Assembly (NCBI GenBank): GCA_037043015.1
Contig: CM073331.1
Location: 6,521,305-6,585,304 of the forward strand
Direction of reading: 5' to 3'
Source: Bryum argenteum
Lineage: Eukaryota; Streptophyta; Bryopsida; Bryales; Bryaceae
DNA: 64,000 nucleotides
Positions 4,120 to 56,820 of the stretch are shown piece by piece (position 1 is the stretch's first letter; every line of letters begins with the position of its first letter). The translations under genes and the position numbers were made by a program. Under the pieces are notes generated by a model. That model saw only the letters and a list, made by a program, of their open reading frames with translations. It searched no databases and was not told the DNA's origin.

Positions 4120-5062
4120 CATTTTCTGAGTCTTAGTCATTTTTTAGTATCTGTGACTGTGTTTAGTCATCTAGCAGTCTGACTATTAAGCGTCGCCGTG
4201 CGACCAGAGTATAGACTAGTCCTAGTCACAAAACGGACAAGATGTGACAACAACTGATCAGAGGTTGTCAATAGTAAGACTAATTACAGTCACCGGAATA
4301 AAACATGTGATTGCATTCGATTAAGATTCCAGCACCGATGTGACTAGACTTAGTCTCAAAATGTACAAGGTGTGACTATAAGTAATCACATCTCATCGAC
4401 AATATGACTATTTTCAGTAACGGAAGCAACAAGATGTGACTGCATTCAATCACGATTCATCATGTGTATGACTAGACTCAGTCCCATACTTCCGATAATC
4501 TGACTAGTACTCATCATAATTATAACTGAACACAACTCCCCATAGTCAGGGATTACTGCAGATATGACTATACGCTGTCACATGCTGTGCCGCCTATAAA
4601 CTATAACCTCCAAATGTGACTATATAGGGTCACCGATTGGAACATAGATGACATGTGTGTGACACACACATACACAAAATGACTCCGCTCTGTCGGATTT
4701 ATCCGACTGCGCTTAGTTACATACATGTGGTTTTCCCGGAAGTGACTCTCGGGTGTGATACGATCGTGTCACAGCTATTTGTGTGACTGAGAGTAGTCAC
4801 ATTCATGAAAAATGTAACTAAGAACCTCAGCCCATATCACCAAACCGCTAGTCACAAATAAAAAGTGATCGGTTTTTAACAATGACAACATTCAGTCACT
4901 TTTTCCGGCCACAAAGTAACAGAGTTTAGTCACATAATTCAGGTGCCATCGGGCAGCCCAAAACGAGGTCCCTAAAAAGTCAATGGGAACAGCCCTGGGA
5001 ACATCCCGTAGTCACATATGCAATGTCCCGAGCGACTCAATGTTCACCACACATCATAGTCA
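4120..5062. repeat. CACTA subterminal array of TGACTA...TAGTCA motifs
   Basis: Roughly 940 bp carry a TGACT or AGTCA pentamer every 15-40 bp in alternating orientation. Examples are TGACTAGACTCAGTC at 4468-4482 and TGACTGAGAGTAGTCAC at 4784-4800. The array resumes on the far side of the inserted solo LTR (8512-8590), just before the terminal repeat. In En/Spm such subterminal repeats are binding sites for TnpA. I infer the same role here, with the TnpA-like gene at 49-4088 as the partner. No gene is present in this stretch. Confidence 0.75.
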
Positions 5063-5602
5063 CTGTCGGACCCCGTTTTTTCAATTTTTGTCCATTATGT
5101 TCTAATGCGCATTAAGAATAAGTATAGTGTTTAGAATCCGACCTAGGTTTTTGTTAAACCGTATACTATAAGGCAATTACGTTTTTACAAATAAAGGACT
5201 TAGCTAAAATCTAGTTTGTGTTAAGTAGGACGGATTTGCCAATCCGTACTCTGTCCCCGTACGGCTAGGACGTGCTGTCAGAGGACGGATTAGGAGTTAT
5301 GATGGTAGGTGAAGGACGGAGTGGCGAAGAATTTAATAATGGCAAGAAATCTAGAAGGCGGCCCCGTACGGGGAAGTACAATGATGGCGGCGGACCATGT
5401 CATGATGGTCGGACTTAACTCCGGCCACCTCGATATAAGGCAACCCGTCCGCCCTTGTCGTCACCTGCCTCCTCGTTTTCTGCGCCTCTTGTCGTTTTGC
5501 GCGCCTGCTCTCCGTCTTTCCGCCTTCCGTCCTTGGCTGCGATCCGGCCCACTGGCCGACCTCAGCCCGGCGACACTCTACTTTCTCGCGCACTTTTTTC
5601 CG

Positions 5603-7099
5603 ATGGCCGGGACGGCTTCCACTTCCGCGCAGGAGCCAGAGGAGCTGAAGATCTCCATCAAGCTCGTGCTGCCGTGTATTCCGCTCGATGACACGGAGAA
5701 GAAGACGTTGACGGAAGACCTCGAGCGGATGGGGTTAGCCGGCCTGCTGGATACGCCCTGGGGTTTGCGCGACGCGGAGATGGTGCGCGAGATCAAGGTC
5801 GGCGCGCCAAACCAGTTCGAGGGGACGGTTAGAGGGAAGCCGGCTTCCTGGACGGCCGAGCACTGGAGAGCGGTTTACGGCCTGACCGTAAACAACGGGG
5901 TAGGGTTATGCGGCCGGAAACACAAGTGGGCGAAGAAGGCGTTCCACGGGGATCCGCACAAGAACAACGGCTACTCCATCGAAGACTGCAGGAATCCGAG
6001 GGAGCGCGCCGTCATCAAGTTCTTGGCGCCGATAATTCACGGGGAGAAGCCGCACCGGATCACCGTACGGCTGGCGAACACCGTCCTGGGCTCGTTGCGC
6101 GGAGAAAGGGAGACGGATTGGGGGATGATCATCCGCGACTTGGTCGCCCGGCTCGCGGAGAATGTAGGTAAAACCCGTCCTAGCCCCATCACTCCTTTCC
6201 TTTACCATCTGTACAAGAAGGAGGAGGTGCTGACGGAGGAGGAGGAGTCACTCTACGAAGTCGCGCTGTCTTCACAAAACAACGGCGTGTTCGAGTCGGA
6301 GGAGACTACGGATAGCAAGGCCGTATACTCGGACGAAGAGGAGGACGAGGTCGGATCAGATGAAGGGGACGCCCCACCCGACGCACCAGAGGAGCCGGCC
6401 CCGGAGGCAACTCCACCCCGAGCGCGTCCAGAGGTAATTATCCTTCCGTCCCCGTCCCCTCCCACGAATCCGACCGAGGCCGGAACGCAGACTGAGAGAG
6501 GCCAGCCTTCGAGGCCGGAGGATGAAGGGGAAGTTACGGCCGACTGGGAGAACCCCATGAATCCGAACGACCCCCGACTTCCCCCACTTCTCAGTCCGTC
6601 CGCCAACCATCCGGATCCCATGAGGCGAGCGTGGTATCACTTCACGGAAGCCAGATGCCAGTACTTCGCCTACCAAGAGCTGATTGCAAAGATGTGCCGG
6701 GAATTTGAAGTAAAGACGTTGCTGGAGGTCAAGACGAAGTGGGATTCCAAGCCGGACGCGGAGCAATTCCGACAAATGGAGAAGCAAGTGACCAAGTTGG
6801 TCCTGGAGAATAGACGGCTTCGGGAGACGGTCAGGAGAAGAGAAGAGGAGCTCCTGGTCGGAAGACAGGCCGTAATCACAGCCAACGAGCAGGTCGTAAA
6901 GCTCGTGGAGATCTGCGAGGTTCCGGCCGAGGTGCTGCAGAGGGCAAACTTGTTCGAGGCCGGAATCTTGGAGTCGGAAGTCTTCAAGGCGGATGCGTTC
7001 AAGAAGTTCCTGTTGGCGGCGAAGACGTACGCCACGAAGGTGGAGAAGAGCAACGCTGAAGTCAAGTCTTTGCTTTCGACGCCGCACGGGAGCAGATGA
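5603..7099 (+). CDS. LTR-encoded protein of unknown family, solo-LTR copy
   Basis: The chosen ATG (5603, protein start MAGTAS) matches the MAGERAS start of the homologous ORF in the 4.9-kb LTRs, so the 98 open codons upstream are probably not used. The 498-residue protein has three parts. An N-terminal conserved domain of about 210 residues includes RMGLAG, an EHWRAVYG block, EDCRNPRER, FLAPI, EKP, and a WG...R..A block ending YHLY. An acidic, proline-rich linker follows (about 215-340). A charged, probably coiled-coil C-terminal part comes last (about 345-490). The same order is seen in the 4.9-kb LTR protein. I do not recognise the family. It is not a canonical Gag: there is no zinc knuckle and no Retrotrans_gag motif. 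The frame breaks near 7080, and coding character continues to 7523 in other frames. Confidence 0.7.
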   Translation: MAGTASTSAQEPEELKISIKLVLPCIPLDDTEKKTLTEDLERMGLAGLLDTPWGLRDAEMVREIKVGAPNQFEGTVRGKPASWTAEHWRAVYGLTVNNGVGLCGRKHKWAKKAFHGDPHKNNGYSIEDCRNPRERAVIKFLAPIIHGEKPHRITVRLANTVLGSLRGERETDWGMIIRDLVARLAENVGKTRPSPITPFLYHLYKKEEVLTEEEESLYEVALSSQNNGVFESEETTDSKAVYSDEEEDEVGSDEGDAPPDAPEEPAPEATPPRARPEVIILPSPSPPTNPTEAGTQTERGQPSRPEDEGEVTADWENPMNPNDPRLPPLLSPSANHPDPMRRAWYHFTEARCQYFAYQELIAKMCREFEVKTLLEVKTKWDSKPDAEQFRQMEKQVTKLVLENRRLRETVRRREEELLVGRQAVITANEQVVKLVEICEVPAEVLQRANLFEAGILESEVFKADAFKKFLLAAKTYATKVEKSNAEVKSLLSTPHGSR

Positions 7100-7523
7100 T
7101 GAAGGAGGTAGTGATGCCGGCCTTCACTTCTACTCCGGCCAAGACCCCGCGGCCGGATCAGGCCGAGACGGAAGCCGGACCGTCGATCCGACCGACCCAA
7201 ATGGCAAGGCGAAGGTGAAGACGGAGTCGGATGCACCCGTCCCAGCCCCAACAGACTCGCCGGCCAAGAACACGCGCACAACAAAGAGGAAGCTTACGGC
7301 CGAGGAGTACGAGAGGTCCCCCGGAGCCCAGAAGTTACACGACCTCGGCCTCGAGCATTCCGAAGAGGAGGAGTTGAAGAGCGGAGACGAGACTAACTCC
7401 AGCGAGGACGAGTACGTGCTCACCGAGACGGGCAAGAGGGTGAAGGCAGGACGTATCGCAGCCGACGCCACCAAGCGGCGAAGCATGGAGTTAGTTCGCG
7501 GAAGAAGAGGTAGGACGTCTTAG
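7100..7523 (+). pseudogene. Frameshifted C-terminal tail of the solo-LTR-encoded protein
   Basis: Downstream of the stop at 7099 the coding pattern continues. One frame gives AFDAAREQMMKEVV from about 7077. A second frame from about 7190 gives a basic-acidic tail ending at 7521 with KRVKAGRIAADATKRR, which resembles a bipartite nuclear localisation signal. At least two small indels therefore separate it from the main ORF. Without them the protein would be about 640 residues. Confidence 0.5.
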
Positions 7524-8511
7524 AGGACGGTGTCACAGACGGACGGTTGGGGGGTTAGGAGGCCGGATTGGTATCCGTCCTAGGCGATATAGTATCTTCT
7601 TTTTGAGGAATGCGCGTGCTTTTTTGAGGAGTAGGCACAGTAGGCGGCGCCGCAATCCGATTAGGGATCTAAGTCGTTGACTTAGAAGTACTTATAGGTG
7701 GGAGTTTTGTCCACGAACATTCCTTGCTTGAGTGCTAATCGAACCTTCTTATGCGCATATTCGGTGTGATCATTTCCCTGTCTCCTTTTCAGTTGAGTGC
7801 TTGGAAAGCCGGATCTACTTGTGTGTGTTGTGAGTTGGGAGTTAGGAATCCGGATTCTTTGTTAGATCGTTTCTGTGGAGTTGAAGTCGGGTTGGGCGTA
7901 TTCTTGAGTGCCTTGTGTCTTGAACGGTCTAGGTGTGCGAGAGAGGGAAGCTGCTGTGGTAAACACTTACGGTGCGGGAGGTTACGGGAGTATAGTGTGT
8001 GAGGACGGATTCCAATCCGGCCTCCAGCTGCCACAGACTTGGGTTCCTCTGTTGTCTCAGAGGACGGATTAAGCGCAATACGTGACCAGAATACGTGTAG
8101 ACGTCTTCTAGCCGGATTCGGAGCTCTTGGAATCTGTCATTGTAGTAAGGGTGATAGGGTAACCAGGACGGCCTACGTGACCTGCTAGTTCGGACGGATA
8201 GGACGGATTAGTTGTGAGGACGTAATGTGTGCCTTAGTGTGTGTGTGTGTGTAAAGTCTAAGTGTGGAAGTTTCCGCCACGGTAAACATAAGGGAAAGAG
8301 TCTTTGTGCATCCCCTCTTGCAAAGGGATACCCTTGCCCTGCAAGGCTAAAACATAAGTTGGGACTAGGAAACGTTGGTGGGTTTGGTTGTTTTAGCACT
8401 ACTTGTCTTGGTCACTTCACAGAATCCCTGGAACGATACACGAGTCACCTGAACACGGGTTTTACACCAATAAACGTGTAAGGGAAGATAAAGTGAATAC
8501 ATGGCATCCGA
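7524..8511 (+). other. Non-coding 3' part of the solo LTR
   Basis: No gene is visible. The segment holds several copies of AGGACGGATT (also near 5220-5300), a (GT)n run at 8238-8253, and AATAAA at 8469-8474 as a possible polyadenylation signal about 40 bp before the LTR end. A TG-rich tract lies at a comparable place after the ORF in the 4.9-kb LTR, supporting common ancestry. Confidence 0.5.
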
Positions 8512-8611
8512 CAGTCACCTCAGTCACAAACACATCCAGGCCCAAAAAGGCCATTTGTTATGATTTTCAGTCATAGTGGCCAGTCACACTACCCCGTGTT
8601 TTCTAGTAGTG

Positions 8612-9808
8612 TCCGGGCAAGGAGGACGACTCGCTCTCCACGAACCCCAGGACTCGTCCCGACTTCCTCCGGTGCAGGAGGGGAGCCTCCTCTCCCTCAC
8701 TGTCGTTTCCGTGCACCGGCCTGAGGGGTGGTGGCGAGACAACTACGGGAGTCGGAGGGGTCGCCATGGCGACCGGGGAGTCTTCCTCCGGTCCGAACAA
8801 AATGGGACCCGGATGGCTCGGCCCGGTGGCAGCCACACTCCGGGTTGCCATCCGGTGAGTGGGGGCCGGCCGGGGTGGAGTGCCTCCCTCCGGGAGGGGT
8901 AGCTGAGCTGCTTCTCTCAGTCTAAGGGTAGCCACTCCTCCTGTGCTGGATCCTGGTGCCCCACCCTCTCCGGGTTGAGGTGCTGCCCCTGTCCGTCGAG
9001 GTCTCTGCTCCCCTGGACCCGGTGGTCCTGGTGGAGCTGGTGGCGGAGGCGGTGGGAGTGCTCCGGCTCCGGGGTTAGCCACCCTAGGGAGGAACTTGGC
9101 TGCGGCGGGGACTCCGTCTCCGGGAATCTCCTCTCCTGGAAACATGTCCCTCCTCTTCTCCATGAGCATTCGGAGGTGCGTGATCTCCCCAGGGTGCAGG
9201 CATTCGTACTGTGCGTACAAATGGTACATGTACGGCGCCAGGGGGCACCCCTTTGCACTGGTGGTCTTCTTCGCTGCGCGGGTAACCACCTCCTCGAGGA
9301 TATGTCCCCACCCTATCTGCCTCCTGCCCAGGTAAGACTCCATGATCGCCTTCAGGAGCCGGTTCGACACTGTCTGTGGCTTCTCCGGGTTCAGGATCGG
9401 AACTAGAAATCGGAGAAGGCGTCGCTCCCTCGCATTCACGCAGTCCTCCACCCGGAATCCATCATGCTCGTGTGCCGGGTTGTGGAACTTCCCGATCAGG
9501 GAGGGGTCGTTCCTCACCTAAATGTATCCGGTGGGGGAGTCCGGGAAGCCATAGGTCGCTCTCCAGCAAGCCTCCTGCCAGAAGTGCGGCTTGGCTCGGA
9601 CAGGATTGTCTGCAAAGGTCGGTGGATCCTGTCCGGACGCGGCCTCCTCAATGATCTCTGCATCCTCCACGTTCCAGGGCACCCAATACAACCCCGCGCA
9701 CCCCATCCGTGTGAGATCCTGCACCAACTATGCTCGGGCATCCTCCGCCATCGGAATGCCAGCCTGGATGATCTTACTCCGGGTTCGCGAAGCTCGCTCT
9801 CCGGCCAT
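8612..9808 (-). pseudogene. LTR-encoded protein of unknown family, 3' LTR copy of element A (truncated)
   Basis: The ATG at 9808 gives MAGERASRTR. The frame stays open through the same conserved blocks as the solo-LTR protein (LTRMGCAG, EDCVNARER, FLVPI, EKP, WG, YHLY) and then a proline-rich linker, until the CACTA element cuts it at 8612. Two in-frame TAG codons occur, just before LVQDLTRMG and just before VRNDPSL. Both fit a CAG-to-TAG change, and both are also present in the 5' LTR copy, so they predate this insertion. The first 400 residues otherwise have no frameshift. Function is unknown. Confidence 0.6.
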
Positions 9809-10503
9809 GGTTCCGTACTCTCCTTCTCCGGGCTATGGCGTACAGGACGGCCGCGTGGAGCAGGGGCGTGCGTGCACGAATCGCGGGAGCAGAAGCGTCT
9901 GCGAGGAGCACGAAAACCGAGGAGGAGCAAAAGGAGGGCAACGGCCAAAATTGGGCCGCTAAAGACAACGGAGTGGGGAGGTGGATGGCGGTGCAGCATT
10001 AATCACGGGCTTTTGTCAGCCCGGGACTGTCGGCGCCGCCGCCAGGGTTTTCCCCGCCCAACCCGTTCGTGGCTACCGACCCGGCCGCTGCCTTCCCCGG
10101 TCTTCGACAACCGACCGGGCCTCAACCGGTCGAGCCATACCCGGCTGACCATACCCGGTTGAGGTATACCCGGTTGGGGCAGCCCTTTCCCGGGTAGGAG
10201 TCAACCCGCAAAGAGCCGCTACGCGTTATCCGGGTCCGCAGCGGGCCGACTGGATACGAGTAGGCAGGACCCTAGCTCGAGAACAGGAGATACAAAGCAA
10301 AAGAAAATTCAAAAAGGTAGTACTACCCTACCCCGTCCACTAAGCCTAAGGATGCTCCTGGGTGGGCAGGTTCCTGGCCGAGCTAACCTTACCCGGTCAT
10401 TACCCGGGTAGGCCAGGATATGGGCGTTTATTTCTCCTAATTAGCTATTACTAACCGCTATCCGGACTCACTTGGGCAAAAAACGAAAAAATTAGGTTTG
10501 ACA
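8612..10503 (-). repeat. 3' LTR of element A, truncated by the CACTA insertion
   Basis: The LTR starts TGTCAAACC (minus strand) at 10503. It matches 21472-19594 nearly base for base, except for a roughly 520-bp patch of small indels in the right copy. It stops at 8612, where the CACTA terminal repeat begins. The rest should lie left of the window, beyond the CACTA element. Confidence 0.9.
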
Positions 10504-10522
10504 TTACACCTTTTTTTTTGTG
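10504..10522 (-). promoter_or_regulatory. Polypurine tract of element A
   Basis: Directly upstream (minus strand) of the 3' LTR the sequence reads AAAAAAAAAGGTGTAA before TGTCAAACC. An A/G-rich run abutting the LTR is the usual plus-strand primer site. Confidence 0.55.
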
Positions 10523-10558
10523 AGCGTCCTCGCGAACTCTCCGCCCCTGTAACTCCGG

Positions 10559-11539
10559 TTACTCGGACCCGGACTGTGAGGGTTCGTCCTCCTCCGAAGG
10601 AACCTCCTCATCCGTTAACTCCTCCGGGTGGTACTGTTTCACCCTCGACCCATTCACACGCGTGTCCATGCGGTTACCCTGTAAATCCTCCAACTGGAGG
10701 GATCCGTTGGGAAACACTTGAGCTACCCGGTAAGGGCCCATCCAGCGGGTGTGTAGCTTACCCGGAAAGTTTTGATGGCGGCTGTCGTACAGGAGCACTA
10801 GCCCGCCATCTCGGATTCCATGGTCCCCTGGAAGCCTCCTGTCATACTTCTCCTTCCGGTTTTCCTGCACCGCCCGGTTTCTCTCCATGCCTTCTGCTCG
10901 GCCCTCCTCCAAGGCGTCGATGGCTTGTAACCTCTCCGGTTTGCCGTCTCCCTCTTCTCCGAGCCTCGTAGCCATAACCCGGTGAGTCTCAACTGCAAGC
11001 TCCACTCCGTGAATGGCCTCCTGGCCGAAGACCATGAAGTACGGGGTCTTCCCGGTGGTTGTTTTCTCCGCCGTGTTGTACGCGTGAACTGCGGAGGCAA
11101 GCTTCCTGTCCCAGTCGGTCTTATGGGCGGACACCATCTTGTTTAGCATTTTGCCGATGGTGCCGTTTGACCGCTCCGTCTGAACGTTGGCCTTGGGATT
11201 GTACGGTGTTGTTTTGCGGTGCCGGATAGCATACTTGGTGGTGATGTCCTCGATGGCATCATTGATGAAGTGCGCTTCCCGGTCGCTGACCAGTTCCAGG
11301 GGATGGCCGAACCGCATCATGATCTCTTCGAACAGGAATGACGCTGCTGTCATGGCATCATTCCCCCGAGTTGCCCGGGCTTCTACCCACTTCGTGGCGT
11401 AATCGGTCGCGAGTATCATGTAGCGCTTCCGGTTTTTGGTAATGGGGGCGATCGGACCGACAAAGTCGATTCCCCATTTGACAAAAGGGGCCAGGGGGAA
11501 AATCGGGGTAAGAGGCCAGTGGTTCCTGAAACCCGGTTG
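10559..11539 (-). CDS. Integrase of element A
   Basis: The segment encodes the integrase core and C-terminal region. The acidic residues are visible: Asp in GIDFVGP (upstream of the first internal ATG at 11419), Asp in VSDREAHF and Glu in QTERSNGTI. The downstream part has the GPYRV/LQLEDL region of Ty3 integrase tails, without a recognisable chromodomain. The zinc-binding H-H-C-C region lies just upstream in the same frame but beyond an in-frame TGA at 11540-11542, where related elements usually have a glycine or arginine after CQRT. The stop at 10559 lies 56 bp from the 3' LTR. The element is non-functional unless the stop is suppressed. Confidence 0.85.
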   Translation of the reverse strand, partial: QPGFRNHWPLTPIFPLAPFVKWGIDFVGPIAPITKNRKRYMILATDYATKWVEARATRGNDAMTAASFLFEEIMMRFGHPLELVSDREAHFINDAIEDITTKYAIRHRKTTPYNPKANVQTERSNGTIGKMLNKMVSAHKTDWDRKLASAVHAYNTAEKTTTGKTPYFMVFGQEAIHGVELAVETHRVMATRLGEEGDGKPERLQAIDALEEGRAEGMERNRAVQENRKEKYDRRLPGDHGIRDGGLVLLYDSRHQNFPGKLHTRWMGPYRVAQVFPNGSLQLEDLQGNRMDTRVNGSRVKQYHPEELTDEEVPSEEDEPSQSGSE

Positions 11540-13204
11540 TCATGTCCGCTGGCATTGGTCGCAGCGCTGGACGTACTGCCGGACATCCCGGATTACGAAG
11601 GGCCACCAATACCCCGCACTCTTAATACGGTTAACCGTACTCATGGCGGCTAGGTGCCCTCCGGAATCACCCGCATGTAAGGCCTCCATCACCTGCCTTC
11701 GCTCTCCGGGTTCCAAGCACCGGCGTAGCCTGTCATCGGCTCCCATCCGGAACAGGATTCCGTTGATCAAGGTGTAGGGTGCCACTCGGTGTTGGAAGAC
11801 ACTCTTCTCTTCCCGGTTCATGCCTGCGGGATAGCGCTGAGTCAGGAGGTAATCCCGTATCTCCTGGAACTCAGAAAGTGTCTCGCTCTCCACCCGTAGC
11901 ACCGTAACGTCCGGCTTATCCTGGCTATCCGGGAATTCGTCGGGGAACAGGGAGGAGATGTCTTCCAGGGCCGGTTCGCCTCGCATCCGGGACAAGTAAT
12001 CGGCATTGGCATTTGCCCTACCCGGTTTAACGACTACCTCGTAGGTAAACTCCTGTAACAGGAGAATCCACCGGGCTATCCGTCCAGAAAGGTCCGGCTT
12101 GTTCACCAGATACTTGAGCGAGTCGTGATCCGTATGGAAGACCACCCGATATCCGAGTAGATAGTGCCGAAACTTCTTGCAGGCATAGTCTACAGCCAGG
12201 GCCTCTCGTTCAGTGGTGGTGTAATTTCTTTCCGCTGAACTCATTTGTCGGCTAGCGTAGTAGATAGGCCTTTCCCGCTTCTGCTCATCCGGCTGCCACA
12301 GAATGGCTCCTAGGCACCATCCCGAGGCGTCGAGGGTAACATGGAATTCCCGGGTCCAGTCCGGAGGTGCCAAGATAGGTGCCCGGGTTAGCTGCTGCTT
12401 CAGGTCCTCAAAGGCGGCCTGCCTTCCCAGTTTCCACAGGAAGGGCTCATCCTTTTTCAGCAAGGCCGTTAACGGGGCAGCTTTCCGGGCATATCCGTCG
12501 ATGAAGCGCCGGTAATATCCTACGCAACCCAGGAATCCGCGAACCTCCTTCACCGTTCGCGGTGGTGCCAGTGTCAGGATAGCACTGACCTTGTCCGTAT
12601 CCACCTGCAGCCCTCTCCGGCTCACCACGTGCCCGAGTAGTAACCCGGTCTCCATTCCGAAAAAACATTTCCCGGGATGGAGCTTGAGGTTGGTCTCTCT
12701 ACAGCGCTGGAATGTTTTCCTCAAGTGCTCCAGGTGATTCTCCCGCTTCCCGAACACTGCGAAATCATCAATGAATACTTCTAGGAAATGCCGAAGAAAG
12801 TCCTTGAAGATATCCATCATGAGCCGCTGGAAGGTGCCCGGGGCGTTACACAACCCGAACGGCATCCGGTTAAAAGCGTAGGTCCCCCATTCCGTAGTGA
12901 AAGTGGTTTTCAGTTGGTCACTTTCCCGGATGGAGACCTGATTGTACCCGGAGAATCCGTCCAGGAAACTATAAAGTTCCTGCCCGGCCACGTGATCCAG
13001 GATAATGTCGGTAAACGGGAGCGGGAAGTAATCCTTCTTAGTGGCGGCGGTGAGCTTACGGAAGTCCTGGCAAACCCGGATCTTCACCTTCCCGTCCGCC
13101 CCGGTCTTCTTCGGTACCACCACAATCGGGGACACCCACTCCGTGTTGTTAACCGGATAAATGAACCCGGCCTCCAGTAGCCGGTCAATCTCCTCCTTCA
13201 CCAT
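11540..13204 (-). CDS. Reverse transcriptase, RNase H and integrase zinc finger of element A
   Basis: The 554-residue open segment begins inside the RT fingers. The catalytic Asp of FLDGFSGYNQ (about residue 82) and FIDD (144-147, the YxDD box with F for Y) are intact. RNase H follows, with its first Asp in VTLDASGW (about 292), then TTEREALAV and the DYLSRMR connection. The segment ends in the H-H-C-C zinc finger (CDQCQRT). It continues upstream in frame through PIRQRQYRLNPKYS to a TAG near 13288. The order RT-RH-IN and these motifs assign it to Ty3/Gypsy. All visible catalytic residues are present, so only stop codons inactivate it. Confidence 0.9.
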   Translation of the reverse strand: MVKEEIDRLLEAGFIYPVNNTEWVSPIVVVPKKTGADGKVKIRVCQDFRKLTAATKKDYFPLPFTDIILDHVAGQELYSFLDGFSGYNQVSIRESDQLKTTFTTEWGTYAFNRMPFGLCNAPGTFQRLMMDIFKDFLRHFLEVFIDDFAVFGKRENHLEHLRKTFQRCRETNLKLHPGKCFFGMETGLLLGHVVSRRGLQVDTDKVSAILTLAPPRTVKEVRGFLGCVGYYRRFIDGYARKAAPLTALLKKDEPFLWKLGRQAAFEDLKQQLTRAPILAPPDWTREFHVTLDASGWCLGAILWQPDEQKRERPIYYASRQMSSAERNYTTTEREALAVDYACKKFRHYLLGYRVVFHTDHDSLKYLVNKPDLSGRIARWILLLQEFTYEVVVKPGRANANADYLSRMRGEPALEDISSLFPDEFPDSQDKPDVTVLRVESETLSEFQEIRDYLLTQRYPAGMNREEKSVFQHRVAPYTLINGILFRMGADDRLRRCLEPGERRQVMEALHAGDSGGHLAAMSTVNRIKSAGYWWPFVIRDVRQYVQRCDQCQRT

Positions 13205-13288
13205 CAGGGAGTATTTCGGGTTAAGCCGGTACTGGCGCTGGCGAATCGGGCTAGCTCCTTCGACTAGGTCGATTTGGTGCTCCCCTAG

Positions 13289-13906
13289 CTACGGAGGAAT
13301 TCCTCGGAGGTCTGTGGGCGCCCAGGCGAACACATCGGTAAACCCGGTCAGCAGGGTGCTGTACTCGCTCTTTTCCCGGGTAGTCAGGGTCTTCCCCAGG
13401 AAGAACTTCTTTCCGGGGCCAACTTCGACCTCCTCAAAATCCTTGGGCGATACGACGCCTTTAACCCGCTCGGGTTCGGCCTCCTCCGGGGTTATTCCCA
13501 GGTTTCCCCATGGGATAACCCCCTCCCCGGTGAGCCGACAAGGTTGACCAGCGGGGTCGGCGAGCTGCTTACGTATCCACTTCTCGGATAGGGCTACGCA
13601 CGACTCTCCAAGAGATCTGTCGTCCATCTCCGGTTTATCCTCGACTTCCTCATCTGCACCCAGCTCCCGTCCTTCCTCTGTCACGGAATCCGGGAATTCG
13701 AAGTCCTGCTCTACCAAGCCGGAGAATTCGCCCACCAGGTAGCTGGCCTGTGCATTGGAACTCTCCGTGTCCGACCACTCCGTGGTGTAGCCGTCGGATT
13801 CGTGTGTCTCTCCTTTGTGGGCGGAATGCATCCAGGGGATGATGAGGGTCAGCCGCTTTCCGACCCGGAATTCTTTCTCGCCCCAGTCTACTATTACCCG
13901 GGCCAT
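13289..13906 (-). CDS. Protease-RT linker of element A pol
   Basis: This open segment continues the pol frame between two TAG codons (at about 13913 and 13288). Its start MARVIVDWGEKEFRVG follows the LLGRP motif of the protease segment, where related elements have a tryptophan, consistent with a TGG-to-TAG change. The middle is acidic and poorly conserved. The end, FAWAPTDLRGIPP, is the usual entry to RT in Gypsy elements. It is part of pol, not a separate gene. Confidence 0.75.
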   Translation of the reverse strand: MARVIVDWGEKEFRVGKRLTLIIPWMHSAHKGETHESDGYTTEWSDTESSNAQASYLVGEFSGLVEQDFEFPDSVTEEGRELGADEEVEDKPEMDDRSLGESCVALSEKWIRKQLADPAGQPCRLTGEGVIPWGNLGITPEEAEPERVKGVVSPKDFEEVEVGPGKKFFLGKTLTTREKSEYSTLLTGFTDVFAWAPTDLRGIPP

Positions 13907-13912
13907 GTAGAG

Positions 13913-14740
13913 CTAGGGCCGTCCCAGAAGCATCCGGAAAGGTCGCCCGGTTGCTACCCGGATAATGACAAAGTTCAGGGGGTAAGTAACCCCCCCTATT
14001 ATGGTGGGAACCCTGGAAAGTCTCCCTACCGGGGCTACCCGGGATTGGTCAGCCATGCGGAGGACCAACTGGGTTGTTTCCAGGGTAGTGTATCCGAGGT
14101 CGTAAGCCGTGTCTTCCAACATCAGGTTTACCCCGGAACCACCATCCACTGGTACATCGTGGATGATGCAACCATCCACCTCCACCTGCAGCTCGGGTGC
14201 GCCAAAATCCTCCACTTGTGCAAAGTTTACCGCCACCGAAGGAAGCTTGTATCTCTTCTTCCGGCGTTGAATCCAGGCTTCCCGGACACTCTTCTGATAA
14301 TTGGCGTTATCGTGGAGAAGCTGCCCGATGGTCACATTGGCCTGCGTGTCCTTGATATCTTGCAGGATATCGTACTCGTCGACCCGCACTTGGGGTCCGG
14401 GTTTGATCACGACAGGGTTGTCCTGGAAATGAACAACCCTGCGGTCAGGGTCTGCCCGGGGTGCGGCAAAATCCGCCCTGACCTCATCGCTGATGTCACG
14501 ATCGAGCTTGGTGGGTTCCACCCCTTTTTCTGCGTCTGCTAGGGGTGGTGTGGGAAGTTCTACCCGGGTAGGCTCTTCATCTTTTTCTTCCTGCCCGGGT
14601 TCTTCATCTTCTCGGGCTTTCCGGTTAGCCTCCCGGATCGCCTTCTTCTGTCGCCTCGAGCCTGTGTTGCTCTTTTCCTGGGTGGAACTACGCGTGGAGA
14701 CTTTGTTGACTGCTGCCTCCTGTCCGCCGGGTAGCTCCAC
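13913..14740 (-). CDS. Aspartic protease segment of element A pol
   Basis: The N-terminal half is charged. The C-terminal half is a retropepsin-like domain with the active-site motif VPVDGGSGVNLM (Asp-Gly-Gly in place of the usual Asp-Ser/Thr-Gly) and a downstream hydrophobic-Gly region ending FRMLLGRP. It is in the same frame as gag, separated only by a TGA at about 14750 and three codons. This organisation could be a real gag-pol stop or a mutation. Confidence 0.75.
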   Translation of the reverse strand: MELPGGQEAAVNKVSTRSSTQEKSNTGSRRQKKAIREANRKAREDEEPGQEEKDEEPTRVELPTPPLADAEKGVEPTKLDRDISDEVRADFAAPRADPDRRVVHFQDNPVVIKPGPQVRVDEYDILQDIKDTQANVTIGQLLHDNANYQKSVREAWIQRRKKRYKLPSVAVNFAQVEDFGAPELQVEVDGCIIHDVPVDGGSGVNLMLEDTAYDLGYTTLETTQLVLRMADQSRVAPVGRLSRVPTIIGGVTYPLNFVIIRVATGRPFRMLLGRP

Positions 14741-14749
14741 CTCGCACCC

Positions 14750-16399
14750 TCATTTATCCGGATTCTCTATGCCGGCCGTGGAACCGTAGTTGAGGCCGGA
14801 CTGAGAACGGGGAGGGGCTTGCACCGACTTGTAGATGACCTTCGGAGGAGGCTTCTTTGGACAACCCTCGAGGTTATGTCCGTACTCATGGCAACCCTGG
14901 CAGGGTAGGTTCTTCGGGGCACCGGGCTCGACGTCAGGTACATCACAGCCACTGGCATAATGTCCTCTCCTCCCGCATCGGTAGCAGATGACGTAGTCCA
15001 GGTAAGTGCCAGTGAGGGGCTGCCCGGATCGCTGTCCGGGTAGACTCCTTCCTGGGGCGGCTGGATAGGACCTGCCTCCGGAACGCGGGGTGACACCTCG
15101 GCCGCGCCCATACCCTGCGTGAACCTGGTACAGGGTAACCACTTCCTCCTCTTCCGGTTCCTCCTCCTCGTCAGCTAACACGTATCTGACCCCGGTCTGG
15201 GGGTCTGTCCACTTCGAAGACCTCCTGGTGGACGTGTTGGGGCACTCCGTGGGGTTGTGCCCGTACTCCTTGCACTTGGAGCACCACACATTAGCTCTCT
15301 GGGTCGGGGGATTCTTGCGGCCACCCTGGAGTTCGGCCATGTTTACTTTGATAGCTTCCAGCTCCGCCAGGACTTTCTTGAGGCCATCCTCCTTCTCCAC
15401 TTTCACTTTGACCGTGGCTGAGCTAGACTTTTTGGAGCTCTTCGCCTTCTCCGCTTTGGCCTCCTCCTCGCTCTCCGAGCTATCGGGGTCGTTTGAGTCC
15501 TGGTCGTCGCTAGCCGCGGAACTGTCCGAGTCGGTGTCTTTCTTCTTCTTATCCTTCTCCTTTTTCTTATCCTTCCCCTTCATGCGGCTACTACGGAGGG
15601 CTTGAGCGGAGTCCTCGTAGTCCAAGGCAGCGTCCATAGCCTCCCTGAGCGTCTCCGGTTTGCTCCTCCGGATCTGGAAGGACATATCCTCCGGTAGCCC
15701 GCCCACGTACCACTGGACGGCCACCATCGGAGCGATGTCGAAGGCTACCTTGTTCATTAGGGCCTTTATCCTCTGCCCGTACTTCCGAACGGACTCGTAC
15801 TCGCGCTTCCGGACTTTCCCTAGTTGCATCAGGGCCCGCGCTTCCCCTCCGGCTTCCCGGAAAGCATGAAGGAAGGCTATCCTGAGCTGATCCCAGTTAG
15901 CCTTCACGTCTGCGGGGACATCGTTGTACCACTTCAACGCTTCACCTTTCAGTAACCCGGAGAAGAGGCGGAGCCTGGACTCCGAATCTTCAAGGTTGGC
16001 ATCGGCTGTGGCAACGAACTCCTCAACCCAGTCATCCACGTCCTTGCCACCATCACCGGCGAAGCGGCTATACTTCAGCCTGGTGAGAGGGGCGCGACGG
16101 AGCGGGAGAACAGGGTTAGGATCCATGGGTCCTGGGTCGACTCGGCCCGGACTGGGCGGTCCTTCTCTTCCCGGAGGAGAGCTAGGGGTGTCACTCTCGG
16201 ATGGGGGTGCTGGTACTAGGACCACCCCTACTGTAACCGGGGCGACTACCTCCTCAGGAGGAGATGCGTAGCGGATTTCCTCTTCTTGGTACGTAAATTC
16301 GCGAGCTTGAGCGGCGTGCTCGATCTCGGCTGTGGCCCTTCTCCTGGATGCCCGGGTAACTCGACTTCCGCTTGGCTCACCCGTCTGCCCTCGAGTCAT
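14750..16399 (-). CDS. Gag of element A (capsid and three zinc knuckles)
   Basis: The 549-residue protein starts at ATG 16399, 165 bp after the primer-binding site. A Retrotrans_gag domain (about 110-230) includes FAGDGGKDVDDWVEEF, LKGEALKWYND, W..L...F...F and YVGGLPED. A lysine- and serine-rich acidic region follows. Three CX2CX4HX4C knuckles come last: CSKCKEYGHNPTEC, CYRCGRRGHYASGC and CQGCHEYGHNLEGC. The frame is fully open. Three knuckles are more than the usual one or two. It ends ENPDK-TGA, and the protease frame then continues without a shift. Confidence 0.9.
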   Translation of the reverse strand: MTRGQTGEPSGSRVTRASRRRATAEIEHAAQAREFTYQEEEIRYASPPEEVVAPVTVGVVLVPAPPSESDTPSSPPGREGPPSPGRVDPGPMDPNPVLPLRRAPLTRLKYSRFAGDGGKDVDDWVEEFVATADANLEDSESRLRLFSGLLKGEALKWYNDVPADVKANWDQLRIAFLHAFREAGGEARALMQLGKVRKREYESVRKYGQRIKALMNKVAFDIAPMVAVQWYVGGLPEDMSFQIRRSKPETLREAMDAALDYEDSAQALRSSRMKGKDKKKEKDKKKKDTDSDSSAASDDQDSNDPDSSESEEEAKAEKAKSSKKSSSATVKVKVEKEDGLKKVLAELEAIKVNMAELQGGRKNPPTQRANVWCSKCKEYGHNPTECPNTSTRRSSKWTDPQTGVRYVLADEEEEPEEEEVVTLYQVHAGYGRGRGVTPRSGGRSYPAAPGRSLPGQRSGQPLTGTYLDYVICYRCGRRGHYASGCDVPDVEPGAPKNLPCQGCHEYGHNLEGCPKKPPPKVIYKSVQAPPRSQSGLNYGSTAGIENPDK

Positions 16400-16564
16400 G
16401 AAGCACTACACCGGGTATACCTCCGGCGGCTTCTAGACTTGCGGTTGGCTCGCACTTGCAACTCCTACCTGCAAGACGATGTGAGTGAGCTTTGATCTCG
16501 TCACCAGAACCTCCAGTGTGGCTCTCCTTCGCTCCTGGCAGGAATGTCGAACTTGCAGCTTTAG

Positions 16565-16584
16565 GATCCCCGGCAGCGGCGCCA
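16565..16584 (-). promoter_or_regulatory. Primer-binding site, tRNA-Asp type
   Basis: On the minus strand the site reads TGGCGCCGCTGCCGGGGATC. It is complementary to the 3' end of plant tRNA-Asp(GUC) (...GATCCCCGGCAACGGCGCCA) with one mismatch. It lies 10 bp after the LTR terminus at 16595. This fixes the 5' LTR boundary independently. Confidence 0.85.
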
Positions 16585-16594
16585 AAAGTAATCG

Positions 16595-19500
16595 TGTCGT
16601 AACGTGCTTTCCTGATTCGTGTCCGGATAACCCTTTTTCGTGGTAAAAGAGGTTTCCCAAACAAGAACCCGAGTATTCGTCCACGGAGATCCTGTGAAGT
16701 GCAAAGACAACAATTTCCACCAGTTAGCCAACCCGGATTTGTGCTATCCGGGTATTGTCCTCTCACTCCCGTACCCTGTATCCTGTCCTAGAAAAAGCTA
16801 CCCGGACAAGAGAAAGGGGGGGGGGGGTTAATCTTTGTGGTTTAGTTTAACCTCTGTATTCACCTCAGAGGAGTTTTCCCGCGTTTAGATGAGTGGGGGG
16901 AATTAGACCACTTTTCCCGTTGATTAACGTGACCGGGAAGGTCACCGAGACTCTCTCTCTCCTTACCCTGTTAGGAACTTCCCTTATACCTCCCTCTACG
17001 CCCGGACTCTAGATCCACGCGCATGTCACAAAGGTCGGTATCCGGTTCTCCTATGGTCCGGTTGTCACAACTCACTACCCGGGTTAGAAGATCCCGGGTT
17101 ACTGGACTGGGGGTGGTGCGACTGACCCGGAGTTCACCGCTATTACCCGTACACTAACCCGCCTACCCGGACTTCAGCAATCCAGGGGGACTCAACTGAG
17201 TGCGGCCTCGGGAGTCGGTTAAGCGGCCGGAATCCCTTCCTGGCCGCTGTACTCCTGAAAGCTGCACGGACAGACTAGACTGTGCCCTAAGTAAGAGGTG
17301 CCGTTCGTTGGCCGCACTCTTCTCCTGCCAGCTTCTCTACTCTCTCCACTAAACTCCGTTCAAAAACGGAACCGTTACCTCTTGCCCGGGCAGCAAGGGT
17401 CCTCTGAACTCTGCAAACACCCCGACCCAGCAGACAAGACAGGAAAACGAGAAAGATACACAATCCGACGCACACGCACACACACGAGGGAAATGAGAAA
17501 GAGGCGTACTTGCACTGGATTAGGGTATTGCAAAATCACAAAAAGACCCCGAGGGGGTATCCTCCCCTCGCCTAAGTAGCAGATCCTCCCTGGCATCCCA
17601 GAAGAGGACAAAAATCCCTTGCCAGGGAATCTTTCTAAATCTATCCCTCTGCCAGCCTAGCGCCGTCATTCTCCTATCTGCAAACAAAATACTTCTAACC
17701 TAATCTCGATCCGGGATATCCGCCCATCGTTATCTCAGCCCTGACCGTCCCCCTCCATCCTGACGGTCACAGTGCCTCGGCAGTCGCGGAGGCGCCGCCT
17801 TCCTGCTCTTTCGGCCCGGGTTGGGAGGTGACCTCCTCCTCTTCGTTTCCTGTCTCCTGGAGCAGTGGAGCGGTCCCTCCGCTCCCCAGGACCTCAGTAT
17901 CCCCTGAAGGCATCGGGGCTGAGGTGCCCGGGAGTGCCTCCCCTATTTCCGGGACATCAATCAAGTCCTCGTGGATGAGGGGGGTAACCTCCGCGGTCAG
18001 CACCTTCTCGGGGAGGACCTCGAGGTCAGAGGGCTCCGACGGATCGGCTAAACCCGGACAGCGAGGTGGCCGCGACTCCTCTGTTCCCAATCCGGTTTTC
18101 CGGGTATCCGTCTCCCCCTCCTGTCCTGGTTGGATCGTGGCCTCTAGGGCAGGAATAGGACTCCTGTCCTCGGGGTCCACAGTCCGGTCCGGTAGAATGG
18201 GGGAGGGACTCCTTACCCGGGTATCCTCCTCCGCTACCCAGGAAACCTCTTCCTCATCTATCCGGGGAGCCTCCTCCTCGACTGGGGGTATGCCCTTCAG
18301 GCTTGCCTCAGCGCTCTCCGGTACGTCCTTACTGAGGGAGTGCAAATTTCCTGTCTCCCTCGAGGTCTTCTCCGGGCTCAGGTTCGTGGGCAGGACCGGT
18401 TCCTCCATTGCCGCGGGGTCGGTGGGCTCTTCCTCCTCGGCCCTGGCATCCTTGGTCACTTCGGGGTTGCCCTGGATGGGGGTACCCTCTACAACAGCAA
18501 GGGGAGGTGCCTCCCCGGGAAAAGTCCGGGCCATCTCCCCGATGAGGTCTCTCATCTCCTGGAGAGCCCCTTCCATCCTTTCCGCAGCCTTCTTCATATA
18601 CGCCGCCATCCGGGTTGGAAGGTCCGATCCTGAGGCCTGGAATTGGGCGTCGAGTAGCTGGGCCTTCAGCTGTGCCTCTCCGGGTGCATACAGGAACCTC
18701 CTAAGTCCGAAAAGATGCTGCCGAGCGTACCCCTGCTGCTTGGTCAGCTCCTCTTCCAGCTGCTTAATTTCCCGGGCTTGGCGCAGGATGATGAGGGATC
18801 CCTCACTGATACTTGCCCGGGCTGCAGCGTTTTTGCGGACTAAATCCCTCACTATGTCGGGGTACCGCTCCACTTGGCCGGTTCGGAGTGCCACTGATAT
18901 ACCGCGTAGGGCCTTGTGCATCTGGAGGTGCTCCTGCGTGCATACATGCAGGGCATGCGCAATGGGCTGCAGAGGGTGCTCCTCTGCTATCTGGAATGGG
19001 GGTACAGGGAGGCTGGGATCGAACTCCGGCCTCCGCGGGGTGAAGTCGTCCCACCCTGGCAACCGGGTAGCATTGGAGGGTGCCGCCTCTGCGTGTACCC
19101 GGGTAGCGTGGGCAGGCGAATGCGGTGCGGTGGCCTCTCCTTCCTCTGACTCAGAGGACTCCTCCAGCACCTGCTTCCCCTTCCTCCGGATTTCTCCCTC
19201 CCCGGGTGATGAGGTCCGCTGAACTGCTGGGATTGCTCGAATTACCGGTTTGAGGGGTTCGGCCCGGGCAACAGGAGAAGCGGCCAGGGTTGGTGAAGTG
19301 TCCGCCCTCAACTTCGTGAGCTTCCTCCGGACCCGTGGGCGGGGACTCTCGGCGGGGAGGTCCGCCTTCCTCTTCTTCGCGTATTGCGGGTCTCCCCACT
19401 CTATCCCTCCCGTGGCGGTAGGCTGTCCGGGATCATCTGCCGGGCTATCTGCCAGGAGAAGTACCTCAGTAGGGATGTCCCCCACTGGCGCTTCCCGAGT

Positions 19501-21472
19501 CGGGGTCTGTACTTCCGGGGTAGGGCCTCCTCGCTGCAGAGCTCCCCCAGCCTCGGTCTCTCCTGGCGGGGCCGAGGCTTCCACTCCCTGTTCTTCGGGC
19601 AAGGAGGACGACTCGCTCTCCACGAACCCCAGGACTCGTCCCGACCTCCTCCGGTGCAGGAGGGGAGCCTCCTCTCCCTCACTGTCGTTTCCGTGCACCG
19701 GCCTGAGGGGTGGTGGCGAGACAACTACGGGAGTCGGAGGGGTCGCCATGGCGACCGGGGAGTCTTCCTCCGGTCCGGACAAAATGGGACCCGGATGGCT
19801 CGGCCCGGTGGCAGCCACACTCCGGGTTGCCATCCGGTGAGTGGGGGCCGGCCGGGGTGGAGTGCCTCCCTCCGGGAGGGGTAGCTGAGCTGCTTCTCTC
19901 AGTCTAAGGGTAGCCACTCCTCCTGTGCTGGATCCTGGTGCCCCACCCTCTCCGGGTTGAGGTGCTGCCCCTGTCCGTCGAGGTCTCTGCTCCCCTGGAC
20001 CCGGTGGTCCTGGTGGAGCTGGTGGCGGAGGCGGTGGGAGTGCTCCGGCTCCGGGGTTAGCCACCCTAGGGAGGAACTTGGCTGCGGCGGGGACTCCGTC
20101 TCCGGGAATCTCCTCTCCTGGAAACATGTCCCTCCTCTTCTCCATGAGCATTCGGAGGTGCGTGATCTCCCAGTGCGGGCATTAAATCTTGTGCGTACAA
20201 ATGGTACATGTACGGCGCCGGGGGCACCCTTTGCACTGGTGGTCTTCTTCTGCGCGGGTAACCACCTCCTCGAGGATATGTCCCCACCCTATCGCCTCCC
20301 GCCTGGGTAAGACTCCATGATCGCTTCGAGAGCCGGTTCGACATCTTGTGCGTGGCTTCTCCGGGTTCGAGATCGGAACTAGAAATCGGAGAAGGCGTCG
20401 CTCCCTCGCATTCACGTGATCCTCCACCCGGAATCCATCATGCTCGTGTGCGGGTTGTGGAACTTCCCGATCGGGGAGGGGTCGTTCCTCACCTAAATGT
20501 ATCCGGTGGGGAGTCCGGGAAGCCATAGGTCGCTCTCCGGCCAAGCCTCCCGCCGAAGTGCGGCTTGGCTCGGACGAGATTGTCCGCAAGGTCGGTGGAT
20601 CTGCCCGGACGCGGCCTCTCAATGATCTCGCATCCTCCACGTTCAGGGCACCCAATACAACCCCGCGCACCCCATCCGTGTGAGATCCTGCACCAACTAT
20701 GCTCGGGCATCCTCCGCCATCGGAATGCCAGCCTGGATGATCTTACTCCGGGTTCGCGAAGCTCGCTCTCCGGCCATGGTTCCGTACTCTCCTTCTCCGG
20801 GCTATGGCGTACAGGACGGCCGCGTGGAGCAGGGGCGTGCGTGCACGAATCGCGGGAGCAGAAGCGTCTGCGAGGAGCACGAAAACCGAGGAGGAGCAAA
20901 AGGAGGGCAACGGCCAAAATTGGGCCGCTAAAGACAACGGAGTGGGGAGGTGGATGGCGGTGCAGCATTAATCACGGGCTTTTGTCAGCCCGGGACTGTC
21001 GGCGCCGCCGCCAGGGTTTTCCCCGCCCAACCCGTTCGTGGCTACCGACCCGGCCGCTGCCTTCCCCGGTCTTCGACAACCGACCGGGCCTCAACCGGTC
21101 GAGCCATACCCGGCTGACCATACCCGGTTGAGGTATACCCGGTTGGGGCAGCCCTTTCCCGGGTAGGAGTCAACCCGCGAAGAGCCGCTACGCGTTATCC
21201 GGGTCCGCAGCGGGCCGACTGGATACGAGTAGGCAGGACCCTAGCTCGAGAACAGGAGATACAAAGCAAAAGAAAATTCAAAAAGGTAGTACTACCCTAC
21301 CCCGTCCACTAAGCCTAAGGATGCTCCTGGGTGGGCAGGTTCCTGGCCGAGCTAACCTTACCCGGTCATTACCCGGGTAGGCCAGGATATGGGCGTTTAT
21401 TTCTCCTAATTAGCTATTACTAACCGCTATCCGGACTCACTTGGGCAAAAAACGAAAAAATGAGGTTTGACA
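16595..21472 (-). repeat. 5' LTR of element A (about 4.88 kb) with internal ORF
   Basis: On the minus strand it runs from TGTCAAACC (21472) to ACGACA (16595), followed by a 10-bp spacer and the primer site. The first 1.9 kb equals the 3' LTR at 10503-8612. It contains, in sense orientation, a leader of about 695 bp, a coding region (20777-17767), and about 1.17 kb of trailing non-coding sequence. That trailer has a G/C homopolymer of about 13 bases near 16816-16828 and a TG-rich run near 17470. The LTR length rests on the primer site. The other LTR is truncated in this window and cannot confirm it. Confidence 0.8.
17767..20777 (-). pseudogene. LTR-encoded protein of unknown family, 5' LTR copy of element A
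   Basis: The ATG at 20777 (MAGERAS) begins a protein of about 1000 residues. From about 20151 to the stop at 17767 the frame is fully open (794 codons). This part has a proline-rich linker, an acidic-basic region, a predicted coiled coil with EIKQLEEELTKQQGYARQHL, an amphipathic block AAYMKKAAERMEGALQEM, and a long acidic Pro/Glu-rich tail. The N-terminal conserved domain is the one shared with the solo-LTR protein. It is broken here by about twenty 1-2-base indels at 20163-20680 that are absent from the 3' LTR copy. Two in-frame TAGs are shared with that copy. The layout (conserved head, Pro-rich linker, coiled coil, charged tail) suggests a structural or nucleic-acid-associated protein, but this is inference. 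Confidence 0.6.
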
Positions 21473-24700: not shown

Positions 24701-24799
24701 GTGGTCAAGGTACTTGCAGATTCGAGATGCTCTTTCTTATTTCTCTTTTTACGGAAAAATATCTCCGGAATGCACATTCTGTAGACAATAGAGCATTGA

Positions 24800-25032
24800 A
24801 ACCACATCAAAGTGTTTTATACTATCATTGCAAAAAATTGCTTCTTTTTTGTAAGATTGTTCAAAGAACTAAGAACTCTACATGTTCCATCCACAATTGA
24901 CCACTGTCACTTCGTGCTTCAATTACAATGTTCATTTTCACTTGCAAAATTGATATGAGTGCCATAAGTTGTTCTTTAGATACTTGAGCATATGCTTATT
25001 GAATCATTGATATGTTCCTTGTTTGTTTCTTG
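24800..25032. repeat. Partial copy of the 945-bp long-inverted-repeat element
   Basis: This stretch is nearly the complement of 57408-57640 and parallels 56938-57120. Shared blocks include TTGCAAAAAATTGCTTCTTT, CTACATGTTCCATCCACAAT and TGAGCATATGCTTATTGAA. It is a truncated arm that ends 26 bp before the Ty3 element at 25058. Confidence 0.75.
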
Positions 25033-56378: not shown

Positions 56379-56820
56379 CATATACTCTGCAAATCAGATT
56401 GTTGTATATGTTCAGACGCACTCGTTCTCTGAATATTTCAGCAGCAGACCGATCGGATATTTCAAAGCATACATGAAGAGGTGTTCTTTAGCACTGTCAA
56501 ATTTGGCAATTGGCTGGCAATTTATCAGGCTTTTAATCATTGTGAACGTAGAATCCACATTCGAACCTAGAAATATCAGAAACTGCTAGAATATGAAATT
56601 TGCGAATGAGAAATTTGTGAGCTTCCTTTGAGAAATTCTGCACACGTAGGCTTTAAAGGATAATTCTTGAGGTAGTAAAGTGGTTTTATAAGTTTCCATA
56701 TGAGTTCCCTGCGATGACTTCTACAGTGGTTTCCTACAATGACTCTCAAATGTACTGTAGAACGACAAAGATTAGAATAAGTCTCAACTTCTAAGTACAC
56801 TCTGTCAAAAGACTTTAATG

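What the first reader, a model, noticed from the sequence alone, without database searches (positions are those of the whole stretch)
5063..21472. Two different LTRs carry homologous, sense-oriented ORFs of an unrecognised protein family
The solo LTR at 5063-8511 and the 4.9-kb LTR of element A (21472-16595, minus) each contain one long ORF in sense orientation, beginning MAG about 540 and 695 bp from the LTR start. The proteins share an ordered set of blocks (RMGxAG, EDCxNxRER, FLxPIxxxEKP, WGxI, YHLY), then a Pro-rich acidic linker and a coiled coil. The two LTRs also begin alike (TGTCxxACCxCxTTTTTTC). Coding LTRs are rare. Conservation across diverged LTR families suggests selection on an LTR-encoded protein, expressed either as a 5' leader ORF or from the 3' LTR.
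Basis: partly seen in the sequence, partly recalled or inferred. Interest (0 to 1): 0.88.

Follow-up and report, generated by a model that had tools for sequence, protein, structure and literature searches.

The report
Conserved protein encoded inside retrotransposon LTRs
Two related plant retrotransposon families carry, inside the repeats at their ends that are normally non-coding, a gene for a protein that evolution has preserved, so even a lone leftover repeat can hold an intact gene; what the protein does and whether it is made are not yet known.

Summary
The solo LTR (5064-8511; TSD GTCAC) and the 4.9-kb LTR of element A (21472-16595, minus) carry homologous sense ORFs; the window copies are broken. 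In two full elements of the solo-LTR family (E1, E2), ORF sequence sits in both LTRs, intact (635 codons) in E1's 5' LTR; element A has it in both LTRs. Seven of 12 TSD-flanked solo LTRs read keep an intact ORF. Purifying selection is strong: dN/dS 0.11-0.18 for 13 diverged family-B copies, 0.08-0.20 for the N-domain of 8 diverged family-A copies, near gag and pol (0.12-0.13), against 0.45-0.69 between sister LTRs of one element. Five outside proteins match (26-43% identity). No Pfam family is met, but the N-domain weakly resembles Transposase_32 (PF20167), carried by extra ORFs of other elements here, apparently outside LTRs. In family B, a TATA box, an AUG-free leader and AATAAA bracket the ORF. 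Best reading: an extra ORF moved into the LTR, which became a self-contained gene for a probably nuclear coiled-coil protein. Expression and function are untested. My limited paper searches showed coding LTRs only in retroviruses.

The parts
5064..8511 (+). solo LTR of family B, TGTCGGA...TCCGACA
5059..5063 (.). target-site duplication GTCAC, left copy
8512..8516 (.). target-site duplication GTCAC, right copy
5434..5440 (+). TATAAGG, candidate promoter of the LTR ORF; no ATG in the leader up to 5603; inferred function
5603..7099 (+). LTR ORF of family B, MAG..., 498 codons then stop; frameshifted relative to the 633-635-codon ORF of relatives
6993..7523 (+). second frame that holds the C-terminal remainder of the LTR ORF after the frameshift
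8413..8422 (+). CACTTCACAG, also near the end of LTR A; candidate 3' splice site or U5 signal (inferred)
8469..8474 (+). AATAAA, candidate poly(A) signal 43 nt from the LTR end
16595..21472 (-). 5' LTR of element A, 4,878 bp
17767..20777 (-). LTR ORF of family A in the 5' LTR, MAG at 20777; frame broken in the N-domain, open from 20151 to 17767
16692..16701 (-). CACTTCACAG in LTR A, 97 nt before the LTR end
16566..16584 (-). primer binding site TGGCGCCGCTGCCGGGGAT
14750..16399 (-). gag of element A (Retrotrans_gag, Ty3_capsid; zinc-knuckle match below its cut-off)
10559..13906 (-). pol of element A in pieces (RT, RNase H, integrase zinc-binding above cut-off; rve just below)
8614..10503 (-). 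3' LTR of element A, truncated after 1.9 kb; second copy of the ORF, MAG at 9808

Best explanation
A lineage of Ty3/gypsy elements carries an extra ORF that lies within the LTR instead of the internal region, so an element bears two copies and a solo LTR one. Shown: location in both LTRs, homology between two families whose LTR DNA gives no blastn match, purifying selection, intact ORFs in solo LTRs. Suggested: the N-domain is a remote relative of the Transposase_32 domain of ordinary plant extra ORFs, so the gene was moved or absorbed into the LTR rather than invented there. Inferred: in family B the LTR is a complete gene (TATA box, AUG-free leader, ORF, AATAAA), transcribed on its own from any LTR, while gag-pol RNA comes from a start downstream of the ORF or from a spliced or read-through transcript. 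The product (helical N-domain, acidic/proline-rich linker, coiled coil, basic C-terminus) is most likely a nuclear protein acting in trans for the family, for instance countering silencing or handling the element's RNA or DNA. That last role is a guess.
For: Paired LTRs: E1 and E2, 3.4-kb LTRs 98.2% and 97.7% identical, 5-bp TSDs, PBS and PPT in place, ORF sequence in both LTRs. Family A: both LTRs of the window element and seven more same-strand pairs of hits 9.4-12.5 kb apart among the 150 places listed (recounted; not read as sequence). Selection: 13 of 13 family-B copies with LTR identity of 92.2% or less to the window give dN/dS 0.11-0.18 against E1, dS 0.27-0.35; codon positions diverge 0.060/0.040/0.196; other sense frames give above 2; family-A N-domain 0.08-0.20 in 8 of 8 distant copies; gag 0.13 and pol 0.12 between E1 and E2. 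Outside homologues: 5 proteins, best E 1e-142. Fold link: hhalign score 33.9 against at most 19.6 in 40 column shuffles and 11.6 reversed. Promoter: TATAAGG and no ATG in the leader in 18 of 18 copies where a MAG start was matched (of 21 examined); AATAAA 43 nt from the end in 14 of the 15 of these with a complete LTR. Solo LTRs: 7 of 12 intact.
Against: No expression data of any kind. Family A has no TATAWA/TATAAG match before its MAG and has an upstream overlapping ATG frame, so the LTR-as-gene reading rests on family B. The PF20167 link is weak: hhalign probability 31-39%, P 3e-4 to 5e-4 for one comparison, carried mainly by one of the PF20167-like groups (L067); three other groups alone gave nothing. 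Pfam scans do not report it for the LTR-ORF proteins. Private changes in nine B2 copies are less constrained (dN/dS 0.25) than shared ones (0.13), so nothing here shows selection on the solo copies themselves. Thirteen of the 21 family-B copies examined are broken or truncated in the ORF.
Confidence: 0.6

Rival explanations
1. Leader ORF: the genomic RNA starts at the family-B TATA box, the LTR ORF is its first cistron, and gag is reached by splicing, reinitiation or an internal entry site. The LTR is then nearly all R.
For: TATA and AUG-free leader upstream of the ORF and AATAAA near the LTR end in family B; CACTTCACAG near both LTR ends could be a 3' splice site that would lead to gag.
Against: No strong 5' splice site seen between the TATA box and MAG (sequence, by eye); gag would lie behind a 635-codon ORF; family A shows no TATA box there.
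Confidence: 0.25
2. 3'-LTR (Sag-like) expression: the ORF lies in U3 and is translated from a spliced RNA that ends in the 3' LTR.
For: Works like the MMTV LTR ORF (MMTV papers seen only in the listing; mechanism recalled); a TATA-like TATAAGGGAAG after the ORF in LTR A and ATAAGGGAA in LTR B could start the genomic RNA.
Against: The family-B ORF has its own upstream TATA box; no splice evidence.
Confidence: 0.15
3. The ORF is not made into protein; its DNA is conserved for cis functions or the open frame is a by-product of composition.
For: LTR DNA is regulatory in general. One antisense frame also gives a low ratio, 0.23.
Against: Codon-position pattern and frame-specific dN/dS, full-length open frames in 8 of 21 copies, protein homologues at 42% identity over 99% of the length, 33% protein identity where the LTR DNA gives no blastn match.
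Confidence: 0.03
4. The LTR ORF is a captured host gene unrelated to plant extra ORFs.
Against: Collinear profile match and matching order and length of predicted helices and strands with the PF20167 domain of other elements in this genome.
Confidence: 0.3

Closest known systems
Extra ORFs (eORFs) of plant Ty3/gypsy OTA elements (Athila, Tat, Ogre, Retand), Neumann et al. 2019 (PMC6317226; passages seen)
   Same: Accessory ORF of over 250 codons beside gag-pol, heterogeneous sequence; some carry plant-transposon domains (the paper names PMD, Transposase_28, Athila ORF-1); non-chromovirus elements with LTRs up to about 5 kb; possible remote Transposase_32 relation here.
   Different: [quoted passage not shown] Here the ORF is inside both LTRs, alone in solo LTRs, and conserved between families, whereas the paper stresses lack of conservation.
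PF20167 (Transposase_32) ORFs of other Ty3/gypsy families in this same genome
   Same: N-terminal helical domain followed by a long coiled-coil-like tail; L059 has one about 1 kb downstream of an integrase-like frame (by eye).
   Different: No duplicated same-strand pairs at LTR-like spacing among the 15, 34 and 8 places scored, so one copy per element, apparently outside the LTR.
MMTV LTR ORF (superantigen) and LTR-overlapping accessory genes of complex retroviruses (recalled; MMTV papers seen only in the listing)
   Same: Protein coded within an LTR, duplicated in each provirus.
   Different: Homology not tested; animal retroviruses, U3 ORF expressed by splicing (recalled); here a plant gypsy lineage with, in family B, promoter-like and poly(A)-like signals around the ORF.
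Phygy clade (non-chromovirus gypsy of Physcomitrella), PMC6317226 passages
   Same: Gypsy element without a chromodomain hit.
   Different: Described there as rather short, with a preference for NCGN target sites; A and B are long and the 12 solo-LTR TSDs are varied. Tree placement not tested.

Membership tests
LTR retrotransposon, Ty3/gypsy | paired LTRs with TG...CA, PBS, PPT, short TSD | tested here: met
   E1 and E2: 98.2% and 97.7% LTR pairs, TSD CCCGA and GATTC read by eye, PBS and PPT
LTR retrotransposon, Ty3/gypsy | gag, RT-RNase H before integrase | tested here: met
   Pfam hits on element A; E1 has one 1,354-codon pol frame matching the A pol pieces at 44-74%
LTR-encoded gene | ORF lies wholly within both LTRs of one element | tested here: met
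   E1, E2 and element A; frame fully open only in E1's 5' LTR among these six LTRs
LTR-encoded gene | purifying selection at protein level | tested here: met
LTR-encoded gene | transcript and protein | not testable with these tools
   no RNA or protein data
Transposase_32 (PF20167) | Pfam model match above cut-off | tested here: not met
   not reported for LTR-ORF proteins of either family
Transposase_32 (PF20167) | remote homology by profile and predicted fold | tested here: inconclusive
   hhalign P 3e-4 and 5e-4, probability 31-39%; matching helix/strand order; mostly one group
Phygy / OTA clade | position in an RT tree | not tested
   no reference RT set at hand; no chromodomain hit on element A

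The most novel reading that the evidence does not exclude
The LTRs of this lineage are stand-alone protein-coding genes: solo LTRs, which are dead ends elsewhere, go on expressing a conserved nuclear protein that acts in trans for the family (for example against silencing), so that LTR-LTR recombination does not remove the accessory gene but leaves a working copy behind.
Probability: 0.3. Interest if true: 0.85.

Novelty: new variant of a known kind. Interest (0 to 1): 0.62.

Why it matters
LTRs are treated as regulatory DNA, and genes of such elements are usually sought between them. A conserved protein encoded in LTRs of a plant lineage means accessory genes of retroelements can be missed, that solo LTRs can be genes, and that selection on the mobile lineage can be read from LTRs. 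It also gives a testable setting for how an LTR can host a gene and still serve replication.

Tried and rejected
Looked for the ORF outside LTRs in full relatives: rejected by E1, E2 and element A. Looked for a composition artefact: rejected by frame controls. One antisense frame (offset 1) also gave low dN/dS (0.23); it has 8 stops in E1 and may mirror the sense codon positions; not followed.

Paper searches for coding LTRs: (concerned Phygy and moss elements, moss genomes; two searches were format errors). Listings named retroviral cases (MMTV, foamy virus). Passages opened to check other matching phrases: a fungal paper (PMC12037069) means polyprotein ORFs, a butterfly paper (PMC4016481) non-LTR ORFs, a mussel paper (PMC10974842) a protein of the element, a maize paper (PMC8547701) ORF length in TEs; PMC2664473 mentions an ORF of the human HML8 LTR in a figure title. 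No plant case was recognised; the other listed papers were seen as titles and abstract starts only, and most subscription journals are not in the library.

Full report
What is there. The solo LTR is 5064-8511 with TSD GTCAC. Element A runs on the minus strand from its 5' LTR (21472-16595) through PBS, gag and pol to a truncated 3' LTR (10503-8614). Both LTRs of A hold a MAG codon at the same place (20777, 9808), and the solo LTR holds one at 5603. The window copies are decayed: the solo-LTR frame ends after 498 codons and continues in another frame; in A the N-domain frame is broken in both LTRs. The LTRs start alike (TGTC..ACC...).

Is the ORF in the LTR? Of 443 candidate places for the solo-LTR family (B), 40 were scored. 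Two same-strand pairs 9.4-9.5 kb apart were read in full: E1 and E2 have 3.4-kb LTRs 98.2% and 97.7% identical with ORF sequence in both LTRs. E1's 5' LTR has an open 635-codon ORF; its 3' LTR copy and both E2 copies are broken. Between the LTRs lie gag and, in E1, a single 1,354-codon pol frame. Of 21 family-B LTR copies examined, 12 are solo with an exact 5-bp TSD, 2 are 5' LTRs, 5 are 3' LTRs, 2 undetermined. Eight of 21 have an open ORF of 633-635 codons; seven of these are solo LTRs. Among the 150 family-A places listed (150 of 902 candidates scored), eight same-strand pairs lie 9.4-12.5 kb apart, the window's own included; nine more same-strand neighbours lie 0.2-5.3 or 15.5-24.9 kb apart. 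Only the window pair was read as sequence.

Is it a protein under selection? Against E1's 5' LTR, the 13 copies with LTR identity of 92.2% or less to the window give dN/dS 0.11-0.18 with dS 0.27-0.35; six closer copies (not counting E1's own 3' LTR) give 0.09-0.23. Divergence between five B1 and nine B2 copies by codon position is 0.060, 0.040, 0.196. With E1 against the nine B2 copies, the ORF frame gives 0.13, other sense frames 2.34 and 2.43, antisense frames 2.02, 0.23 and 3.66. In family A, eight of eight distant copies (L051-L058 against L036) give N-domain dN/dS 0.08-0.20 at dS 0.81-1.12, and 0.17-0.31 over the part of the ORF read. Nearer copies give N-domain values 0.05-0.31, except L049 and L050 (0.75 and 0.68), which look misaligned or recombinant there; L039 gave 0.81 over the whole but 0.08 in the N-domain. 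E1 against E2 gives 0.13 for gag and 0.12 for pol and 0.18 for the LTR ORF of the 5' LTRs. Sister LTRs of one element, which diverged only after insertion, give 0.45, 0.69 and 0.68 from few changes. So selection acts in the mobile phase and relaxes after insertion, as for gag-pol; private changes in nine B2 copies (0.25) against shared ones (0.13) agree, with single copies from 0.07 to 0.75.

What is the protein? Families A and B share about the first 225 residues (33% identity, E 3e-39), while their pol pieces are 44-74% identical and gag 57% over 171 columns; blastn at E of 0.001 or less finds no match between the A and B LTRs themselves. Outside relatives: P0001-P0003 at 42-43% identity over 82-99% of the query, P0004 and P0005 at 26-28% over 67-79% (7,991 candidates scored); no names and no genomic context. 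No Pfam family is met; weak hits to coiled-coil families (best GrpE 0.0015) fit the tail. The C-terminus is rich in K and R in family B and P0001/P0002, which suggests, but does not show, nuclear entry.

A link to known extra ORFs. PF20167 (Transposase_32) has 18 matches in this genome, 4 above cut-off. One was read with its surroundings: a 939-codon frame about 1 kb downstream of a frame that looks like integrase by eye. Its domain scored 46.8 bits and 42.7 (E 7.4e-11, cut-off 45) on the whole protein. Such ORFs show no duplicated same-strand pairs at LTR-like spacing among 15, 34 and 8 places; close same-strand neighbours match different parts of the query. Profile comparison of the LTR-ORF domain (12 sequences) with 10 of the 13 PF20167-like sequences fetched (L065, L069 and L070 left out) gave score 33.9, P 3.2e-4, 139 collinear columns (one search gives P 5.3e-4). 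Forty column shuffles reached at most 19.6, the reversed profile 11.6, gag 16.1 and pol 13.7. The signal comes mostly from the L067 group (P 1e-3 alone); the L066, L059 and L069 groups alone did not match. Predicted secondary structures agree: E123-125, H132-145, H155-165, H173-187 in the LTR protein against E115-117, H123-136, H148-158, H165-178 in L067; the second model is weak (pLDDT 60.9). I rate remote homology at about 0.6.

How it may work. In family B, 18 of 18 copies in which a MAG start was matched have TATAAGG 166-169 nt before MAG and no ATG in the 140-143 nt of leader checked; 14 of the 15 of these with a complete LTR have AATAAA 43 nt before the LTR end (in 3 of the 21 copies no MAG start was matched, so they were not scored). 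The LTR thus looks like a gene in itself. In family A the ATG context is ACCATGG or ACATGG, but no TATAWA/TATAAG stands before it and there is an upstream overlapping frame. LTR A has TATAAGG after the ORF, 393 nt before the LTR end, and LTR B has ATAAGGGAA 223-224 nt before the end, possible starts for gag-pol RNA. CACTTCACAG ends 89 nt before the LTR end in B and 97 nt in A; it could be a 3' splice site. All this is inference from sequence.

Known or new? [quoted passage not shown] they do not say whether any lies in an LTR. My searches for coding LTRs (five papers opened at passages) showed retroviral cases (MMTV, foamy virus, an HML8 LTR ORF) and no plant case. I call it a new variant of a known kind: an accessory ORF housed in the LTR.

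Noticed in passing
L009:6081-6083; the same junction in E2 (L012+L011, minus); window A gag end near 14747-14750: gag and pol lie in one frame separated by a single TGA in E1 and E2, suggesting stop-codon readthrough; the A gag also ends in TGA.
   Followed up: partly
genome contig C1 (44.1 Mb): 95 of the 150 best family-B LTR-ORF hits (of 1,418 candidates) lie on C1 against 25.6 expected by length; 79 of the 108 lower-ranked ones. C1 accumulates old copies, as a sex chromosome or low-recombination chromosome might.
   Followed up: partly
8413-8422 (+) and 16692-16701 (-): CACTTCACAG is shared near the ends of LTRs that otherwise hardly align; the window has one further match, at 62247.
   Followed up: partly
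L059:577-3393 (-): A 939-codon extra ORF with a Transposase_32 domain, about 1 kb downstream of an integrase-like frame, in another gypsy family.
   Followed up: yes
25058-25908 and 34207-35056: 93% direct repeats about 9.1 kb apart, likely the LTRs of another element.
   Followed up: no
56816-58706: A cluster of inverted repeats of about 200-360 bp, some shared with 24793-25032.
   Followed up: no
8517-8613: The 3' LTR of element A is cut off about 100 bp before the TSD of the solo LTR; the solo LTR's own TSD is intact, so its insertion did not cause the cut.
   Followed up: no
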